From a virus: 45,587 nt of DNA. The notes beneath the pieces are model-generated. The model was not told the origin of the DNA, did not search any database, and worked only from the letters and a program-made list of their open reading frames with translations. The DNA lies in the IMG/VR virus record IMGVR_UViG_3300021197_001357, positions 1 through 45,587 of that record; one strand, written 5' to 3'. A program made the position numbers and the translations under genes. Position 1 is the stretch's first letter; each line of letters begins with the position of its first letter. Below, in pieces: positions 1-43,690 of the stretch.

Positions 1-111
1 CTTCAGTTTACCAGATTTCACTAGCTCTGGGTAAAGTCTGCGACGGGCCTCTAAATCTCGCTCGTACTCTTGGACAATCTCGCTAAGAGTAACTGGATAT
101 GGGTTTCTCAA
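1..111 (-). CDS. Small conserved phage protein, partial (runs off left edge)
   Basis: A leftward reading frame from a TTG at 109-111 runs off the window without a stop and encodes about 37 residues, including ...SEIVQEYERDLEARRR and LYPELVKSGKL. The pattern of charged helix, then YPxLVxxGKL, is one I associate with short uncharacterised phage proteins; no function is known to me. A GGAG about 12 nt upstream lies inside the last array-1 repeat, so array 1 runs directly into this gene's translation start. The TTG start is an inference; no ATG or GTG was found in frame nearby. Joining the frame to the right end of the window gives a stop after about 20 poor-looking codons, so simple circular closure is not supported. 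Confidence 0.5.
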   Translation of the reverse strand, partial: MRNPYPVTLSEIVQEYERDLEARRRLYPELVKSGKLK

Positions 112-116
112 TATTT

Positions 117-559
117 TGACTCGCTCCGATTGGTTGCTTTTCTGACAACTTGGCTCGCTCTCTCGAAATGCTTTTCTACTGGTGTGACTTACTCTAACTC
201 AATGCTTTTCCCGTCTTCTGGCTCGCTCATAAATCCTGCTTTTCAAACGACTTGGCTCGCTCGTTCGCAGTGCTTTTCACGTCGTATGGCTCGTTCAGAA
301 TGCATGCTTTTCTTTTTCCTTGGCTCGCTCTCGCACCATGCTTTTCCTTCAAAGTGGCTCGCTCTCGTAATATGCGCTTCTCTTTACGTGGCTCGCTCAC
401 AAGGCTTGCTGATCCTCTTTTTAGGCTCGCTCCGACTGAGTGCTTTTCTTCATTTTTGGCTCGCTCCGCCTTGGGTGCTTTTCCCTCTACGTGGCTCGCT
501 CAGGCATATTGCTTTTCGCACACTCTGGCTCGCTCGGTATCAATGCTTTTCGCTCATCC
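117..559 (-). repeat. TIGR-like dual-repeat, dual-spacer array 1 (13 units)
   Basis: On the plus strand the pattern TGGCTCGCTC - 8 nt - TGCTTTTC - 8 nt recurs 13 times. The first repeats begin at 117, 151, 185, 219, 253, 287, 321, 355, 389, 423, 457, 492 and 526, so the period is 34 (one 35). Both repeats are conserved while both 8-nt stretches differ in every unit. First-spacer examples are cgattggt, tctcgaaa, taactcaa, ataaatcc, gttcgcag; second-spacer examples are tgacaact, tactggtg, ccgtcttc, aaacgact, acgtcgta. Degenerate repeats are tgacttactc (185), tggctcgttc (287), tgcgcttc (373), tgctgatc (407) and aggctcgctc (423). The array starts 4 nt after the stop of the leftward DnaA-like gene and ends at the start of the partial gene at 111, so it is probably transcribed leftward as GAAAAGCA-N8-GAGCGAGCCA-N8. 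This matches the layout of tandem interspaced guide RNA arrays, whose processed RNAs are about 36 nt with two short spacers. Open frames crossing it (repeating GSL and ARS) are artefacts. Confidence 0.85.
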
Positions 560-563
560 TGAA

Positions 564-1094
564 TTAAATAAACGCTGAGTTAGAGTTGTTGATCCCGTGT
601 TTACAGGATGCACACAGCCTGTTGTGTATGCCGTCAGACTCAAATAAACCAGAGCAGTTAAGGCATCTTCTAGTGGTCTTCGCCGCCCTCGGATGCAGCG
701 GCCCTACGGGCCTTCTCTTTCCTGTCTTCTTGCGGACCTTCTCCTTTTTAACACTTTCTTTCGGAAGAGGTACAAGTCTCAGCGATCCGTAAGAATGAAA
801 GCTGGTAAATTCGCCCAACAAGATTTGAGCATCCCTAAATGTTTCAGAATTAACGTCCTTCATGCGGTCGTCTACCGCTTTTTTGGCGTGAAGAGCGGTC
901 GTATGATCCCGATTAAAGTGCTCGGCAATTGAAGAAATTGAAGACTTGGTTAACTTTGACGACATCCAAATTGCCAATTGACGAGGCCACGCTACGTTGC
1001 GAGACCGTTGATCTCCCAACATTACAGGTAATGAGATGTCATAGTGGCGGCACACTGCCCGTTGAATTTTTTTCAGGGTGGCAAGTTCACTCAT
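564..1094 (-). CDS. DnaA domain IV-like DNA-binding protein with C-terminal zinc ribbon
   Basis: The protein has 176 residues from ATG 1094, which overlaps the upstream gene's stop; an ATG at 1130 would add 12. The N-terminal half contains SISSIAEHFNRDHTTALHA, which matches the DnaA C-terminal helix-turn-helix signature (G-R-D-H-T-T-V-x-H-A) that binds DnaA boxes. A basic linker (KKEKVRKKTGKRR) leads to a CxxC...CxxC zinc ribbon (CLNCSGLF...CASCK), like those ending GcrA-type regulators of alphaproteobacteria and their phages. No AAA+ ATPase domain is present, so it cannot replace DnaA. It may mark a phage origin, recruit or antagonise host DnaA, or regulate genes. It is the last protein gene before array 1 and is probably cotranscribed with it. 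Confidence 0.75.
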   Translation of the reverse strand: MSELATLKKIQRAVCRHYDISLPVMLGDQRSRNVAWPRQLAIWMSSKLTKSSISSIAEHFNRDHTTALHAKKAVDDRMKDVNSETFRDAQILLGEFTSFHSYGSLRLVPLPKESVKKEKVRKKTGKRRPVGPLHPRAAKTTRRCLNCSGLFESDGIHNRLCASCKHGINNSNSAFI

Positions 1095-1344
1095 CGGTTT
1101 CATCCATTGTGTAAAGGCCATCGTCCCCATCGTCTATGGTCTCTTGGTTTAAGAAATCCCCGCAAACTGGCACCTCCTTACGGTGCCCTCCGCTGTCTGG
1201 ATAAGCAGACCAACAAACTCGATCTTTTGCTAAATACTTGATTCTGCCCTCCTTCCCGCACTTCCCGCACTGCGCGATAATCTCATCGGAATCCTCATCG
1301 TAACCAATGCGATTGTTAAAATAACAGACATGATTATTTTTCAC
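1087..1344 (-). CDS. Small zinc-ribbon protein, unknown function
   Basis: This 85-aa protein starts at GTG 1344. The start is supported by GGAGG seven bases upstream and by an overlap with the stop of the preceding zinc-knuckle gene. It contains CGKCGKEG and, further on, two single cysteines (RVCWSAYP, VPVCGDF), with a very acidic tail (DDGDDGLYTMDETDE). A CxxC knuckle followed by spaced cysteines suggests one structural zinc. It belongs to a run of short, overlapping leftward genes (2549 down to 564) that look translationally coupled. I do not recognise the family. Confidence 0.6.
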   Translation of the reverse strand: MKNNHVCYFNNRIGYDEDSDEIIAQCGKCGKEGRIKYLAKDRVCWSAYPDSGGHRKEVPVCGDFLNQETIDDGDDGLYTMDETDE

Positions 1345-1510
1345 TTGAAGACCTCCACCAATCAACCTTGCCCAACACGATCCCATCTCCATCGCAAACG
1401 TCGCAATCAATCGGGACTGAACGTGTATCGGACTTTTTAAGCCACAGTTTACCCGTCCCATCGCATTCAGAGCAGTCTGATGTGACGTACTTAGCTTTAC
1501 CGCTATCCAT
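1334..1510 (-). CDS. DnaJ-type zinc-knuckle mini-protein
   Basis: The protein has 58 residues from ATG 1510, overlapping the preceding stop by 8 nt (ATGGATAG). It has two CxxCxGxG motifs, CSECDGTG and CDVCDGDG, about 26 residues apart. That is the half-module of the DnaJ cysteine-rich domain that binds one zinc. No J-domain or substrate-binding domain is present. Such stand-alone knuckles are common among phage small proteins and are thought to mediate protein-protein contacts; the partner here is unknown. A longer in-frame extension upstream would lie entirely inside the preceding gene and was not chosen. Confidence 0.6.
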   Translation of the reverse strand: MDSGKAKYVTSDCSECDGTGKLWLKKSDTRSVPIDCDVCDGDGIVLGKVDWWRSSSEK

Positions 1511-1901
1511 CCTGCCGCACCTTAATGTGCTGGAGCATCCCACCAAGACTAACCCTCCATGGGCTCCCCTGCGGGAGCTTTTCAATTTGCGCCTCAGCTT
1601 TCTGAAAATCTGCATCAGACCATTCTATCGGGGGCGCTATCTTTACAGCTTCAGGGACTGGCTCCCTATGAACAAATCGCTTCTCAAAAGCCTTCCACTC
1701 ACCTACCGTGGGAAACCATTTTCTTCCCGGCTCAACTAAAATTCTCTCAGCCACCTTGTTGAACTCATCGACAGTCAAGTTCTCAGTAAAACTCAAAAAG
1801 TCTTCAAAAAAGATTTTGGTCTCAGCGTCACTCATCTGGCGCATTTGAAGGTGGATACGCAGCTTGGCGAGTATCTGCTTCTTAGCCTCACGATTAGACA
1901 T
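1503..1901 (-). CDS. Helical protein, possible helicase-loader-like partner
   Basis: The protein has 132 residues. The start ATG overlaps the stop of the preceding replication-like gene (ATGTCTAA), with AAGG about nine bases upstream. The N-terminal 60 residues are predicted helical and charged, followed by KWFPTVGEWKAFEKRF and IEWSDADFQKAEAQIEKL. The arrangement, directly downstream of a DnaT/O-like C-terminal domain, recalls short phage helicase-loader or replisome-organiser genes, and the FPTVGEW element resembles the sampling-loop region of such proteins. This is inference from size and context; no catalytic motif is visible. Confidence 0.5.
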   Translation of the reverse strand: MSNREAKKQILAKLRIHLQMRQMSDAETKIFFEDFLSFTENLTVDEFNKVAERILVEPGRKWFPTVGEWKAFEKRFVHREPVPEAVKIAPPIEWSDADFQKAEAQIEKLPQGSPWRVSLGGMLQHIKVRQDG

Positions 1902-2388
1902 CTTTAAGCACCTTCAGAGCTTTAAGCGTGGCACTGGTCGGACACGGCTTCTTCTCGTCGGTTACGCGCTTAATCCAATTCCGAAAAGCAGCGAAATGAT
2001 CTCGCTTGGCCCCGTTCTTACTCGACATCGACCAGTTGCAATAAGCGTCAAACTCTGGGTGAGGGTTAAAGCCCGGATATTCCTTGGCTACCCAGTCAAC
2101 CCACTCCCTTGGCATAACCGACCACTCAGTCATCCTAGTGGCGCGAGACGATCCTTTGCCCTTAACCTTCATTTCCTTGGAGGCAGACAGTGGCTTGACC
2201 TTGAGGTCGGGGGAAGACGACAGCCGAGATGCGGCCAGAACGAAACTGTCAGCGCCCTCTCTGTTAGGCCCAAACCAAATTACGACGTTGTCCTCTAAGA
2301 CGACGTACCCCTCCAGACATCCCTCGCCAACATCCTGACAAAGCGTTGATTGGTCTCCAGCGGATTGGGGTTCGCTACGGTTACCCAT
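1894..2388 (-). CDS. Putative phage replication initiation / primosomal protein
   Basis: The protein has 164 residues from ATG 2388, preceded by AAAGGAAAG. The C-terminal half reads WVDWVAKEYPGFN...FDAYCNWSMSSKNGAKRDHFAAFRNWIKR. That is the pattern (W...F..Y......G.K.DW.A.FRNW) found at the C-terminus of phage O/DnaT-type primosomal proteins, which bind ssDNA and help load the helicase. The N-terminal 65 residues are not recognised and share 94 nt with the 3' end of the gene upstream in another frame, an unusually long overlap. An internal start would remove it, but no ATG, GTG or TTG with a good ribosome site was found. It probably acts with the DnaA-like protein and SSB in phage replication. 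Confidence 0.6.
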   Translation of the reverse strand: MGNRSEPQSAGDQSTLCQDVGEGCLEGYVVLEDNVVIWFGPNREGADSFVLAASRLSSSPDLKVKPLSASKEMKVKGKGSSRATRMTEWSVMPREWVDWVAKEYPGFNPHPEFDAYCNWSMSSKNGAKRDHFAAFRNWIKRVTDEKKPCPTSATLKALKVLKDV

Positions 2389-2549
2389 ACTTTCTTTCCT
2401 TTCTTGTGTGCGCTCATCTTTTGAATGAGCCCCTCCAAATGAGTCCGGTCACGCTTCACTGCCTTCACCAGACCCCGAGATACACTAGCACTAATGCTAC
2501 CCGTTGGGACAGCTTTTTTATTGGGTTGAGGCCGCTTACCTTTTGGCAT
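2295..2549 (-). CDS. Small basic conserved phage protein
   Basis: The protein has 84 residues from ATG 2549 with GGAG eight bases upstream. The basic, proline-rich N-terminus (MPKGKRPQPNKKAVP) is followed by a helix rich in K and R. The end, KVWVTVANPNPLETNQRFVR, has the look of a short conserved segment seen in marine phage proteins (VWVTVxNPNxxETNxxF). Function is unknown. Its 3' end overlaps the next gene by 94 nt in a different frame; both frames look protein-like, so both are kept. Confidence 0.5.
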   Translation of the reverse strand: MPKGKRPQPNKKAVPTGSISASVSRGLVKAVKRDRTHLEGLIQKMSAHKKGKKVWVTVANPNPLETNQRFVRMLARDVWRGTSS

Positions 2550-2742
2550 TTGACCGACTCCGGTATAGATACTCGCATTGCTGACCATCCCTCCGGATAG
2601 CAAGGCTAGCCAATCCGTTTTTGTAATCTTCCCACTTTTCCTCAGCAACTTTTGAGGCGGTTTTGGCTTTAACAGTTGGAACAGAATTGACCGTTTCTTG
2701 TCGGTCTTCCATTAAGTTCCCGCACCAATATGTCTTCCACAT
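2536..2742 (-). CDS. Small unknown protein
   Basis: The protein has 68 residues from ATG 2742, chosen because GGAG lies six bases upstream; an ATG four codons earlier overlaps the hydrolase stop but has poor spacing. It begins MWKTYWCGNLMEDRQE and has a helical middle (KTASKVAEEKWEDYKNGLASLA). No domain is recognised. It is tightly packed between the SleB-like hydrolase and the basic small protein, in the same leftward operon. Confidence 0.45.
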   Translation of the reverse strand: MWKTYWCGNLMEDRQETVNSVPTVKAKTASKVAEEKWEDYKNGLASLAIRRDGQQCEYLYRSRSNAKR

Positions 2743-2743
2743 T

Positions 2744-3274
2744 TTAGTCTCCATAAAAAAGGTGAACTCCAATTCGAGACATGAGCGTGTAGTCAGACGC
2801 CCATCTCGGCATAACGTAAGAGGCGTGGTAGTGCGTTGCCCCATCGGTGTTTGCCACACGCACCCCGTCAAGAACCAACTGAGCAACGTACACAGCTTCG
2901 TACCAAGCACCCTCGTCGTTCACTCGCTCAGGCAACCCATCACACCAATACGAAAAGGCACACCTATTCCTTATAGGCATTCCATTTAGATAATGACCGT
3001 AATGGACAACTTCACAGACGGTGTTTGGAAACTCAGGTCGCTCAACGCGCTCAAGGACAACGCCAGCAACAGCAAGTTGCCCAAGAAAGGTTTCTGACCT
3101 TGCCTCAAAGTACACAGCCTCAGCAAGGCAACTTGCTTGAGGCGAAAGATCTTGAGAATTTGCGTGGGATAAGGTGGAGAGCAGGGTGGAAAGAAAGGAT
3201 ATAAAAAACCACCCCGCTCTCGGTCCAACCTTGGAGGGTACTTGGACACTTGCCTTATATACACGAGATTGCAT
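2744..3274 (-). CDS. SleB-type cell wall hydrolase (Hydrolase_2)
   Basis: The protein has 176 residues from ATG 3274. A hydrophobic segment, WFFISFLSTLLSTLSHA, at about residues 20-36 looks like a signal-arrest-release or Sec signal. The catalytic domain follows: CLAEAVYFEARSE, VAGVVLERV, CEVVHYG, CAFSYWCDG, matching SleB/CwlJ-type cell wall hydrolases (spore-cortex lytic transglycosylase family). The E of AVYFEARSE is the expected catalytic glutamate. Phages use this family as endolysins or virion-associated muralytic enzymes. It sits in the tas operon, far from the M15 peptidase at 9505, so the phage has two peptidoglycan enzymes. A longer frame starting at 3499 runs back through the solitary repeat unit and is rejected. 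Confidence 0.85.
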   Translation of the reverse strand: MQSRVYKASVQVPSKVGPRAGWFFISFLSTLLSTLSHANSQDLSPQASCLAEAVYFEARSETFLGQLAVAGVVLERVERPEFPNTVCEVVHYGHYLNGMPIRNRCAFSYWCDGLPERVNDEGAWYEAVYVAQLVLDGVRVANTDGATHYHASYVMPRWASDYTLMSRIGVHLFYGD

Positions 3275-3305
3275 TACGTCAACGACCCAGTATTGGCCAA
3301 TTGCG

Positions 3306-3512
3306 TTAAAGAAAAGCATGCATTTTGAACGAGCCATTTTTTTCGAGTTCCTCGAACTCGTCTTGAACAATCGCAAGAAGGTCTTTGTACTCAAGCTCCA
3401 ACATCTTCGGATCGCTGTGCAGCAAGCTCGGAAAGACGCGCAGGAACCTATCAGCAGCTTCATTAGATTTATCGCCCCACAGATGCGAGGGAATAGCAAT
3501 CGGGTAAGCCAT
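3306..3512 (-). CDS. Small protein translationally coupled to the Tas-like gene
   Basis: The protein has 68 residues. Its ATG overlaps the stop of the Tas-like gene (TAATG), which indicates translational coupling. The sequence begins MAYPIAIPSHLWGDKSNE and has a helical acidic core (LELEYKDLLAIVQDEFEELEKN). The last residues, NGSFKMHAFL, are encoded by the solitary array unit at 3311-3336, so a guide-like sequence overlaps the coding end. Its position immediately after the Nop-domain gene makes it a candidate accessory factor, although nothing in the sequence shows this. No known domain. Confidence 0.55.
   Translation of the reverse strand: MAYPIAIPSHLWGDKSNEAADRFLRVFPSLLHSDPKMLELEYKDLLAIVQDEFEELEKNGSFKMHAFL
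3311..3336 (-). repeat. Solitary TIGR-like unit downstream of the Tas-like gene
   Basis: The plus strand reads GAAAAGCA - tgcatttt - GAACGAGCCA, then a run of seven T. This has the same two repeats, spacing and relative order as array 2. Read on the plus strand, the U-run directly after the unit resembles the end of a short transcript. Read leftward, the unit lies in the 3' end of the small gene after tas. Its spacer (tgcatttt) matches the corresponding spacer of array-1 unit 6 (tgcattct) at 7 of 8 positions, and both use the variant repeat with GAACGAGCCA. It may be a relic, a founder unit or a separate single-guide locus. Confidence 0.7.
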
Positions 3513-4369
3513 TACGATATCTCCGGGCCGGGGGCTTCGATGATGTGTGCATGCTTGAGGATTGCAACGGGGTAGGGATCTGCCGGTGCTTTGCCGTACT
3601 CCCATTCGTACCAACGATAATGCAAGTGACTAAGAAATATTTTAGCCGCATAACGACGAGCACGAGCGTGAAGATGAGCCGGAGGCAATTTGCCAATTGA
3701 GTAGTGAGAGTAAGCTACAGTCGTTTTGCCAACAGTCTTAGCCCTATCCAAAGCGACATCCTTAAACTCCATACTTTCGTTGGCTGCTTCAAGCCGATCT
3801 CGCTCTTCTCTGAATATCTTGCCGTAGAAAGACTTCTTGTGAGCCTGAGTCTTCACGAAAGATTCGCCAGCCTTGAACGCGACCAGCGTTTTTAGCTTCG
3901 CGTTCCAAGGCCGCTTCTTGCCCTTCTCCCATTTCTTCTCGGGGTTCATCCCAGCAAACGACCAGAAGTGTCCGTACGTTGGAGCCTTTCTAATGTCGAG
4001 ATGTGAAAGAAGCCCCGCAGCAATGACTGGGCCAATACCGTGCTGAGCCAGCAACCACCGTCCGACAGGATGATTGTCAGCGTAAACCTGAAGGCCAACC
4101 TTGGCGTTTTTTTCAAGCTGCTCGTAATTGTCACGAGTCAAAGAGAGAACGTGAACAGGCTCTCCCTCTTTTGTCATTGATCGGATTTGAGCACTGGTCG
4201 CAATCCGGTTGTCTTGAACAGTGTAATACTGATCTACAAGAAATCTTGCCTCTTGCTCGCCAAGTGACTGGAACGCAACGCGCTGATCTTTGGTAAGGCG
4301 CTTGACGCTCTCAATGATGAAGTCCTTTTCGAGAGCAAGATCGTCAGATTCGATAGATTGGGTTTCCAT
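3512..4369 (-). CDS. tasA-like: Tas-like Nop/IS110-C-terminal-domain protein (TasA type)
   Basis: The protein has 285 residues from ATG 4369, chosen for the perfect AAGGAGGT five bases upstream (a start at 4393 would add 8 residues). Residues 1-100 are mostly charged helix. A helix-hairpin-helix, AQHGIGPVIAAGLLSHLDI, lies at about 108-126, followed by FWSFAGMNP (135-143), a basic RPWNAKLKTLVAFKAGESF (153-171) and a C-terminal helix rich in R, Y and H (HLHARARRYAAKIFLSHLHYRW). This order matches the Transposase_20 half of IS110/IS116 transposases, the region related to Nop domains that grip box C/D-like guide RNA. The DEDD RuvC half of IS110 enzymes is missing, as is any HNH motif. With the dual-spacer arrays at 117-559 and 43526-43690, the best reading is a TIGR-associated protein without nuclease. 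It would bind tigRNA and then DNA, acting as a blocker or regulator. Assignment is from motif order, not a search. Confidence 0.8.
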   Translation of the reverse strand: METQSIESDDLALEKDFIIESVKRLTKDQRVAFQSLGEQEARFLVDQYYTVQDNRIATSAQIRSMTKEGEPVHVLSLTRDNYEQLEKNAKVGLQVYADNHPVGRWLLAQHGIGPVIAAGLLSHLDIRKAPTYGHFWSFAGMNPEKKWEKGKKRPWNAKLKTLVAFKAGESFVKTQAHKKSFYGKIFREERDRLEAANESMEFKDVALDRAKTVGKTTVAYSHYSIGKLPPAHLHARARRYAAKIFLSHLHYRWYEWEYGKAPADPYPVAILKHAHIIEAPGPEIS

Positions 4370-28895: not shown

Positions 28896-29080
28896 TAGCT
28901 ACGCTTTTTGACTTTACCGCCGCGTTTCATCATTTTTGGAGCGTTCTTACGAGCGGAACCGCCACCCTTCATCATTTTCGGGGCGTTCTTACGGGCAGAG
29001 CCGCCTCTCTTCATCATTTTGGCACCACTTTTACGAGCGGAACCGCCACCCATCATTCTTTTAGGCTTTTTCATTTTCAT
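28895..29080 (-). CDS. Tandem-repeat basic peptide (protamine-like, 61 aa)
   Basis: ATG 29080 has GGAGG six bases upstream. After MKMKKPKRM the protein is about three copies of GGGSARKNAPKMMKR, giving a strongly basic, unstructured chain. No acidic residue is seen. It could bind packaged DNA or the capsid interior. Similar lysine/methionine repeats occur as short proteins in phage structural clusters, from memory. The coding DNA shows matching tandem repeats at 28920-29060. Confidence 0.65.
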   Translation of the reverse strand: MKMKKPKRMMGGGSARKSGAKMMKRGGSARKNAPKMMKGGGSARKNAPKMMKRGGKVKKRS

Positions 29081-38942: not shown

Positions 38943-40318
38943 TACACGATAAATCGACTTGTCGGGATATTTACTCGTCTAAACGCCGGAACATTGCCGG
39001 GAACGGGAAGCCCAAGGTTTGCGTAGGCTTGATAAACCAAGGGTGCTAGGGCTTGGGCGGTAGGAGTGGCGCTAGCATCGGGAACATCCGGAACATTATT
39101 AGGGTCGTTTGGGTCGCCAGCATCAGGCTCATCAACGGCAAGCACTCTTTCTGGCAAGGAAACATTTGCCATGTCCATGCCTGTATTGCCTTGGTTGAGA
39201 TCGCCTTGGTTGAGACTGCCAAGCCCAGTGTTGTAATTGAGACTCACTTGGCTAGGCTGACCCGCTTTGTAACCTGCGTAACCCAGACCAAGGGCAGGAT
39301 TAAGAAAGCCTAAACCAAGCCCAATAGCATCCTGAAGACCAAAGCCGTACCCCCGGCTCACCTCACCGGTATATGGGTTTTGCGTTACAGTCTTTGCCCC
39401 TGGGAGAAATCTTCCAAACCCCTCTTCCTCAAACGTTTGAGCGTCCTTAATAGCACCTCTGGCCTCTGCCGTTGGCTTGTCGTAAATAGTTCCAAACGGC
39501 GTTAATGACATTCCCCTGATGGTTCCGTCCGGCATCGTAGAGGGGATTCCAGCCCCTTGATAAGTAGACCCAGTCACACCCCCTGAAAGAATGTCAAGGT
39601 CATCTTGCAGAGCGTTAATCGCCAGATTTGAAAAATCAACATCAGGACGACTGGGCGTAAGGCCCCCTTGAGTGGCCTCGTCATCGTACTCTACCGTCTG
39701 AGGTGTGGACCTGTTCGCCAAAGACATCGCCGCCTGAATCGCGGCGAGAGGCACTTCTGGAGCAGCCGTGGGGGTTTGTAGAGCCTCTAATGCAAGGTTT
39801 GTAAAATCAACGTCAGGAGGGCCCCCTTGAGTGGCCGCGCCTCTGGACGCATCATTAAGTGAGTCCACGGCAGCTTGGGCTTCGGCTTCAGCTTGGGCTA
39901 TGGAGTTAGCATCGGCAATATCCTGATTGAACCCAACATCATAATCTGCTGCGACAGAAGCATCGGCATCAGCCTGACTAAACCCAACATCATAATCTGC
40001 TGCGGCGGCAGCATCCGCTTCAGCAGCGGCATCAAAATCTGCTTGAGCAGCATCAATGGACGCCTGAACACTTTCGTCACCGCTGTACCCGTATCCCACG
40101 CCTCCACCAAATTGATAAGCGGGGACTAGAGAGCTAATACCTTGCGGCATCATTCCCGGTGGGGGCTGCATGGCGTTCGTAAAGGTTGCCATTGAGTGAT
40201 TGAAGTATTCTCGACCTGGGGCATTGCCGGGAGGCAAATTGGGGGCCGATTGCATCTGAGCCCCGCCCGATTGAGAACCGAACATTTCGGGTGACTGGCT
40301 AAATGGTTGATTATACAT
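38942..40318 (-). CDS. Ala/Asp-rich putative virion protein (458 aa)
   Basis: ATG 40318 has AGGCGAAG upstream. The N-terminus is Gln/Pro/Met-rich (MYNQPFSQSPEMFGSQSGGA). Residues 85-155 contain two copies of an AADYDVGF-containing unit (DYDVGFSQADADAS and DYDVGFNQDIADAN) in an Ala/Asp helix. ATQGG-P-DVDF-NLA appears twice further on (about 165 and 215). The C-terminal third resembles other internal virion proteins (YGFGLQDAIGLGLGFLNPAL). It is probably structural, encoded first in the late leftward block. Confidence 0.55.
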   Translation of the reverse strand: MYNQPFSQSPEMFGSQSGGAQMQSAPNLPPGNAPGREYFNHSMATFTNAMQPPPGMMPQGISSLVPAYQFGGGVGYGYSGDESVQASIDAAQADFDAAAEADAAAAADYDVGFSQADADASVAADYDVGFNQDIADANSIAQAEAEAQAAVDSLNDASRGAATQGGPPDVDFTNLALEALQTPTAAPEVPLAAIQAAMSLANRSTPQTVEYDDEATQGGLTPSRPDVDFSNLAINALQDDLDILSGGVTGSTYQGAGIPSTMPDGTIRGMSLTPFGTIYDKPTAEARGAIKDAQTFEEEGFGRFLPGAKTVTQNPYTGEVSRGYGFGLQDAIGLGLGFLNPALGLGYAGYKAGQPSQVSLNYNTGLGSLNQGDLNQGNTGMDMANVSLPERVLAVDEPDAGDPNDPNNVPDVPDASATPTAQALAPLVYQAYANLGLPVPGNVPAFRRVNIPTSRFIV

Positions 40319-43498: not shown

Positions 43499-43525
43499 AA
43501 ATGCGATGTGCCAGTCATAGCTGAT

Positions 43526-43690
43526 GAAAAGCAAAAGCGACAGAGCGAGCCAAGACCAGCGAAAAGCAACAACCGATGAACGAGCCAAAGTTATCGAAAA
43601 GCATTTCTGTGGAGCGAGCCAAAGTGTGTGAAAAGCAACAGCGCGAAGCGAGTCAATTGGAGTAGAAGAGCAACATAACTGAGCGAAGGT
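43526..43690 (+). repeat. TIGR-like dual-repeat array 2 (5 units)
   Basis: The pattern GAAAAGCA - 8/9 nt - GAGCGAGCCA - 8/9 nt repeats with GAAAAGCA at 43526, 43561, 43596 and 43630, and a variant GAAGAGCA at 43665. The second repeats are at 43543, 43578 (GAACGAGCCA), 43612, 43646 (aagcgagtca) and a decayed gagcgaagg at 43681. Spacers between the first and second repeats are aaagcgaca, acaaccgat, tttctgtg, acagcgcg, acataact; between second and first they are agaccagc, aagttatc, aagtgtgt, attggagta. Decay increases towards the 3' end. This is the reverse complement of array 1, so both give the same RNA strand if this is read rightward from the promoter at 43471. The last repeat supplies the GAAGG before the GTG of the next gene. 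Confidence 0.85.

What the first reader, a model, noticed from the sequence alone, without database searches (positions are those of the whole stretch)
117..4369. Candidate phage TIGR-Tas system: dual-spacer guide arrays plus a nuclease-free Nop/IS110-like protein
Array 1, a solitary unit and a gene for a 285-aa protein with the Transposase_20/Nop-like part of IS110 transposases lie in one leftward operon, with a second array elsewhere in the window. Seen in the sequence: 13 + 5 + 1 units with two alternating conserved repeats and two variable stretches of 8-9 nt, far too short for CRISPR. Established: TIGR-Tas systems in phages combine such arrays, processed to about 36-nt RNAs, with Tas proteins carrying a Nop domain, sometimes fused to RuvC (TasR) or HNH (TasH); IS110 transposases are structural relatives. 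Inference: this is a TasA-type member using RNA-guided binding without cleavage, for repression of host or rival-phage genes.
Basis: partly seen in the sequence, partly recalled or inferred. Interest (0 to 1): 0.97.

Follow-up and report, generated by a model that had tools for sequence, protein, structure and literature searches.

The report
Phage TIGR-TasA guide-array system
This aquatic phage carries a TIGR-TasA system, a recently described RNA-guided DNA-binding system with two arrays of paired 8-letter guides; the identification holds up, comparison with relatives shows how its guides are inherited and reshuffled, and its targets remain unknown.

Summary
The 285-aa protein (3512-4369, -) is TasA-like. 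Its family profile hits solved TasR (E 8e-24) and TasH (8e-14) ahead of IS110 transposases (2e-4), its all-helical model matches TasH and TasR first, and no nuclease domain is present. Array 1 (13 units plus a degenerate one) and array 2 (5 units) are dual-repeat TIGR arrays; 72 of 80 TasA relatives have such an array on the same strand.

Added here: (1) The edge repeat is GAGCGAGCCA and the loop repeat GAAAAGCA. Edge half-sites pair across the unit in 98% of units of relatives, against 90% after shuffling, and A-loop-B units are inherited together while breaks fall in edges. (2) The loop is 8 nt instead of the usual 10, so about 34-nt tigRNAs are predicted, not 36. (3) The "solitary unit" is a 29-nt inverted insertion of a loop-spacer-edge fragment, absent from two close relatives. 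(4) No target above chance was found in the phage, about 2 Mb of relatives, IMG/VR (three guides) or Microcystis (six guides of a related phage).

Binding without cleavage is expected; repression of host or rival genes is untested. A cultured phage, Microcystis phage Mvi-JY20, carries an unannotated relative.

The parts
3512..4369 (-). tasA: 285-aa Nop-domain protein with no nuclease domain
   Evidence: Profile of 51 relatives vs PDB: TasR 9mty 7.6e-24, TasH 21kl 7.7e-14, IS621 2.1e-4; AF2 model pLDDT 84.6, 11 helices and no strands; Foldseek top 11 hits all TasH/TasR
100..563 (-). TIGR array 1: 13 guide units (5'-truncated edge at 560-563; edges GAGCGAGCCA, loops GAAAAGCA, 8-9 nt spacers), last full edge 117-126, then a degenerate 14th unit. 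Starts directly after the stop codon of the DnaA-C-like gene
43514..43686 (+). TIGR array 2: 5 guide units, ending in a 3'-truncated edge GAGCGA; convergent to array 1 across the missing genome junction
3308..3336 (+). Ectopic 29-nt insertion AAA-GAAAAGCA-TGCATTTT-GAACGAGCCA (loop-spacer-edge fragment), a one-mismatch copy of array 1 positions 312-287; inverted relative to array 1
   Evidence: Alignment to L002 and L003, which lack it
564..1130 (-). Gene with DnaA C-terminal HTH domain, directly upstream of array 1
   Evidence: Pfam Bac_DnaA_C 1.1e-20
2744..3337 (-). Cell-wall hydrolase (Hydrolase_2) gene next to tasA; the ectopic fragment overlaps its possible start

Best explanation
This is a TIGR-TasA system of a podovirus distantly related to Pelagibacter phage HTVC023P. 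Array 1 would be transcribed leftward with tasA and the neighbouring genes, and array 2 from the opposite side. The transcripts would be cut inside the GAGCGAGCCA edge repeats into about 34-nt tigRNAs (half edge - 8 nt spacer A - GAAAAGCA loop - 8 nt spacer B - half edge). A TasA dimer would hold one tigRNA through its box-C/D-like ends and bind double-stranded DNA at a 16-nt site, spacer A pairing with one strand and spacer B with the other. With no nuclease, it would bend and occupy the DNA without cutting it. The guides turn over quickly and do not match the phage or its relatives, so the likely use is interference with something else (a rival mobile element or host genes). Shown here: protein family, array anatomy, edge/loop assignment by covariation in relatives, unit inheritance, absence of a nuclease domain, no self-targets. 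Inferred from the published family (PMC12045711): processing, RNP formation, two-strand targeting. Speculative: the purpose.
For: Protein: phmmer to TasR 9mty 2.5e-8 and TasH 21kl 9e-7; profile 7.6e-24 and 7.7e-14, with IS110 far behind; Foldseek top hits TasH/TasR, TM 0.50-0.63, then IS110; a clade member hits the experimentally studied Salicola phage CGphi29 TasH phage, 9e-8. Arrays: 72 of 80 TasA relatives have a dual-repeat array on the same strand, 58 of these 72 within 150 nt of tasA. Edge identity: position 8 of the upstream edge pairs with position 3 of the downstream edge in 780 of 794 units of relatives, with C-G, U-A and A-U versions, against 718 +/- 4 (max 730) after shuffling edges within loci and 692 within one repeat. 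Units: A-loop-B pairs kept 30/31, neighbours across an edge 22/41 (p 3e-5); 156/176 vs 126/249 in relatives (p 3e-17). No self- or relative-targeting: 1 exact match in 2.04 Mb, null 0-1.
Against: No RNA data. The edge 3/8 pair is weaker in the window's own 34-nt clade (76/90, same as shuffled), so edge/loop assignment there rests on homology and unit inheritance. In this clade the array is not beside tasA. No target was found, so the purpose is unproven.
Confidence: 0.85

Rival explanations
1. TasA regulates the phage's own genome (for example gene timing or packaging) by RNA-guided binding to its own sites.
For: tasA sits beside a DnaA-C-like gene, and in relatives beside ParB-like, ERF, YqaJ and PolA genes.
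Against: No guide of array 1 or 2 matches the window, nor guides of relatives their relatives, above permuted pairs; guides change quickly between closely related phages.
Confidence: 0.12
2. The protein is a degenerate IS110 transposase and the repeats are unrelated short tandem repeats.
For: Weak Transposase_20 match; PHROG 4285 is labelled transposase.
Against: TasR and TasH match far better than IS110 in sequence and fold; the DEDD catalytic domain is absent; dual-repeat arrays accompany 72 of 80 relatives; IS110 carries no such arrays.
Confidence: 0.02
3. TasA aids recombination or integration: RNA-guided DNA bending that helps phage recombinases, as speculated in PMC12045711.
For: Phage encodes an Erf/Rad52 annealing protein and an exonuclease; TasR bends target DNA sharply (paper).
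Against: No integrase was identified among the genes scanned (not all genes were); many different guides per phage are unexpected for one integration site.
Confidence: 0.1
4. Guides target host genes such as defence genes, acting as a host-takeover or counter-defence repressor (one of the two purposes left open by the best explanation).
For: Fits nuclease-free binding; a Mvi-JY20 guide has a 1-mismatch match in two Microcystis genomes, at a site that lies in an N6-methylase-like gene.
Against: Matches of six guides in 5-12 Microcystis genomes are about as frequent as chance predicts and as reversed-pattern controls; no enrichment on tRNA genes; window host unknown.
Confidence: 0.3

Closest known systems
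TIGR-TasA with dual-repeat arrays (FpTIGR, Flavonifractor plautii; PMC12045711)
   Same: Solo Nop protein, alternating edge and loop repeats, dual 8-9 nt spacers
   Different: 8-nt loop (34-nt unit, not 36); two convergent arrays; array 1 about 2.9 kb from tasA; an ectopic fragment
SpTasH of Salicola phage CGphi29
   Same: Same Nop family by sequence and fold; 8-nt spacers
   Different: SpTasH has an HNH nuclease; TasA has none
TaTasR (PDB 9mty)
   Same: Nop and C-terminal domains align in order; edge pair covariation as described for TasR
   Different: TaTasR has an N-terminal RuvC nuclease and 9-nt spacers
IS110 transposases (IS621, ISCro4)
   Same: Distant Nop-domain homology
   Different: IS110 has a DEDD catalytic domain and a bridge RNA, no arrays

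Membership tests
TIGR-Tas | Nop-domain Tas protein | tested here: met
TIGR-Tas | Array of two alternating 8-12 nt repeats with paired spacers of 8-9 nt | tested here: met
TIGR-Tas | Array linked to the tas gene | tested here: met
   Same strand and apparent operon, about 2.9 kb apart; 72/80 relatives same strand
TIGR-Tas | Truncated edge repeats at array ends | tested here: met
   TTCA before array 1; GAGCGA ends array 2 in window and in relative L028
TIGR-Tas | Rho-independent terminator after the array | tested here: inconclusive
   None convincing after array 1; the cut window end may matter; clear in Mvi-JY20
TIGR-Tas | Covarying edge pair across the tigRNA | tested here: inconclusive
   Strong in relatives (780/794), no signal in the 34-nt clade (76/90, as shuffled)
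TIGR-Tas | Processing to 36-nt tigRNAs bound by Tas | not testable with these tools
   Unit length predicts 34 nt; needs RNA-seq
TIGR-Tas | Tandem-spacer DNA targeting on both strands | not testable with these tools
   Needs binding assay; no natural target found
TasA subtype | No HNH or RuvC nuclease | tested here: met
   All-helical 285-aa model, no other domain
IS110 transposase | N-terminal DEDD catalytic domain | tested here: not met
   Not found in the protein; all-helical model
CRISPR array | Single 25-36 nt repeat and spacers of similar size | tested here: not met
   Repeats 8 and 10 nt, spacers 8-9 nt

The most novel reading that the evidence does not exclude
TIGR guide units are mobile within and between array sites: arrays change by gain, loss and reordering of whole A-loop-B units with breakpoints in the edge repeats, by duplication and divergence of guides, and by insertion of unit fragments at new sites, driven by phage-encoded annealing recombination and not by a Cas1-like integrase. 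This would answer how TIGR arrays are maintained and expand, which the discovery paper lists as unknown.
Probability: 0.35. Interest if true: 0.78.

Novelty: new member of a known kind. Interest (0 to 1): 0.62.

Why it matters
TasA is the commonest and least understood TIGR effector; its purpose, its natural targets and the way arrays grow are open questions in the discovery paper. This locus and its relatives give a natural series of arrays at the same site in closely related phages. They indicate, without experiments, where guide RNAs begin and end, that guides are inherited as units, and that units are reshuffled at edge repeats. The same search found an unannotated TIGR-TasA system in a cultured cyanophage (Mvi-JY20), where deletion and target-finding experiments are possible.

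Tried and rejected
Taking GAAAAGCA as the edge repeat (first assumption) was dropped when unit inheritance and covariation showed GAGCGAGCCA is the edge. Target searches in four geometries gave nothing above permuted pairs (gaps 0-2, gap 0). IMG/VR scans with three guides gave 23-28 hits each with no contig hit twice; this fits chance for a collection of that size, but no shuffled-guide scan was run. For one guide the excess of gap-0 hits came from common coding words (RKDRN, YYDLY). Host search with six Mvi-JY20 guides in Microcystis gave matches about as frequent as chance and reversed-pattern controls; a tRNA-Gly match prompted a tRNA test (only 17 tRNA genes available) that was negative. 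Substitutions between related guides look evenly spread over spacer positions, so no seed was inferred. An apparent array in L103 is a short tandem repeat, not a TIGR array. The one genome-contig scan for TasA found no relatives and plasmids none.

Full report
OBSERVATION. The repeats are in the sequence and far beyond chance: TGCTTTTC-N9-GGCTCGCTC with up to 3 mismatches occurs 16 times against 0.21 expected. Read on the guide strand, array 1 (window 563 to 100, minus) has 13 units of GAAAAGCA and GAGCGAGCCA separated by 8-9 nt, plus a degenerate 14th; array 2 (43514 to 43686, plus) has 5. The first unit of array 1 begins directly after the stop codon of the DnaA-C-like gene. The 34/35-nt period excludes a coding repeat.

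GENOME CONTEXT. The window is an IMG/VR viral contig of 45,587 bp. Its terminase and portal resemble Pelagibacter phages HTVC023P/027P, phage DSL-LC04 and phage 023Pt_psg01 at 44-60% identity. A relative, L019, joins the two window ends with about 4.4 kb of additional sequence, so arrays 1 and 2 converge on a common region and the window is incomplete.

PROTEIN. The 285-aa product hits solved TasR (9mty, 2.5e-8) and TasH (21kl, 9e-7) by single-sequence search. With a profile of 51 relatives the values are 7.6e-24 and 7.7e-14, with IS621 and ISCro4 (IS110) at 2.1e-4 and 1.9e-3. Both the Nop part and the C-terminal part align to TasR in order. The AlphaFold2 model (pLDDT 84.6, pTM 0.80) is all helical with no strands, so no RuvC or DEDD fold. 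Foldseek's first 11 hits are TasH and TasR chains, then IS110. A clade member also hits a gene of Salicola phage CGphi29, the phage whose TasH was tested in the discovery paper. This is a TasA.

RELATIVES. One scan of IMG/VR found 180 relatives, 80 kept. Of these 80, 72 have a dual-repeat array on the tasA strand, 58 of them within 150 nt. Loop repeats are 10 nt in 64 loci, 9 nt in one, and 8 nt only in the window's clade; one further 8-nt call (L103) and one 11-nt call (L099) are unreliable. The window's clade therefore predicts 34-nt tigRNAs where its relatives predict 36.

WHICH REPEAT IS THE EDGE. In the TasR structure the two ends of the tigRNA, which come from two successive edge repeats, pair with each other (PMC12045711). 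In 36-nt relatives position 8 of the upstream GAGCGAGCCA-type repeat pairs with position 3 of the downstream one in 780 of 794 units (C-G 431, U-A 212, A-U 100, U-G 37). Shuffling edges within loci gives 718 +/- 4 (maximum 730) and pairing within one repeat gives 692. So GAGCGAGCCA is the edge and the A-rich GAAAAGCA the loop. In the 34-nt clade this pair gives no signal (76/90, as shuffled). A limit of the test: related loci were not all removed, although identical guide pairs were counted once.

HOW GUIDES ARE INHERITED. Between arrays of related phages, two spacers either side of a loop stay together (30 of 31) while neighbours across an edge often do not (22 of 41; p 3e-5). In 36-nt relatives the numbers are 156/176 and 126/249 (p 3e-17) (an earlier count agrees). 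These counts are not all independent events, so the p-values are indicative. L005 and L013 array 2 differ by loss or gain of whole units. Within arrays, 10 guide pairs differ at 3 or fewer of 16 positions, where uniform random spacers would give about 0.04 (own calculation), so some guides arise by duplication and divergence. At 3308-3336 the window carries a 29-nt insertion AAA-GAAAAGCA-TGCATTTT-GAACGAGCCA, a near copy of the array 1 stretch 312-287, absent from L002 and L003 at the same place. It lacks a spacer A and the 5' edge and lies opposite to the operon, so it is probably not a working guide, but it shows that unit fragments can land at new sites. It is a single case. The phage has an Erf/Rad52-type annealing protein and a PD-(D/E)XK exonuclease that could drive this; that link is inference.

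TARGETS. The order [A][rc B] used here was worked out from the cleavage rules in the paper; other orders were searched too. With gaps 0-2 and controls, no guide of the clade matches the window or relatives above permuted pairs. Guides from 993 distinct A/B pairs against 2.04 Mb of TIGR-bearing phages and terminase relatives gave 1 exact hit, null 0-1. Three window guides in IMG/VR gave hits that fit chance. Mvi-JY20 has no convincing self-target in the 100 kb searched. Six of its guides were searched in Microcystis genomes (one guide in 5, five in 12); the number of matches is about that expected by chance and seen in reversed-pattern controls. One guide matches two genomes with 1 mismatch at a site that lies in an N6-methylase-like gene, recorded as a lead only. 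tRNA genes are not enriched.

MECHANISM. The family's published behaviour plus this anatomy predict about 34-nt tigRNAs held by a TasA dimer that opens and bends a 16-bp DNA site without cutting. Rapid turnover of guides and no self-match argue for a foreign target (rival element or host), but this is not shown.

VERDICT. A new member of a known kind, TIGR-TasA, with a short-loop variant and useful evolutionary information. Identity is near certain; biological purpose is open.

Noticed in passing
L312:21367-22455 (PP438412.1, Microcystis phage Mvi-JY20): A cultured cyanophage with known host carries an unannotated TasA-like gene (XAI95461.1) and a TIGR array (edge ATGCGAGCC, loop ACGAAACCC, 9-nt spacers, about 9 units) followed by a terminator.
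   Followed up: partly
L092:7024-7663: Array with a 9-nt loop (GAGCAGGCA, 35-nt period), intermediate between 36- and 34-nt types.
   Followed up: no
L054:7373-8230: ParB-like gene (weak Pfam match) beside tasA and array, as in the TasParB association reported in PMC12045711.
   Followed up: no
36-nt arrays, e.g. L100:2841-3794(-): Because 36 is a multiple of 3, these arrays contain long antisense open frames that automatic annotation may report as proteins.
   Followed up: no
window 1 and 45587: Window is missing about 4.4 kb between its ends; relative L019 supplies it (DUF932 protein and others).
   Followed up: partly
window 28926-29056 and 39908-40051: Short tandem repeats elsewhere in the window, apparently not related to the TIGR arrays.
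   Followed up: no
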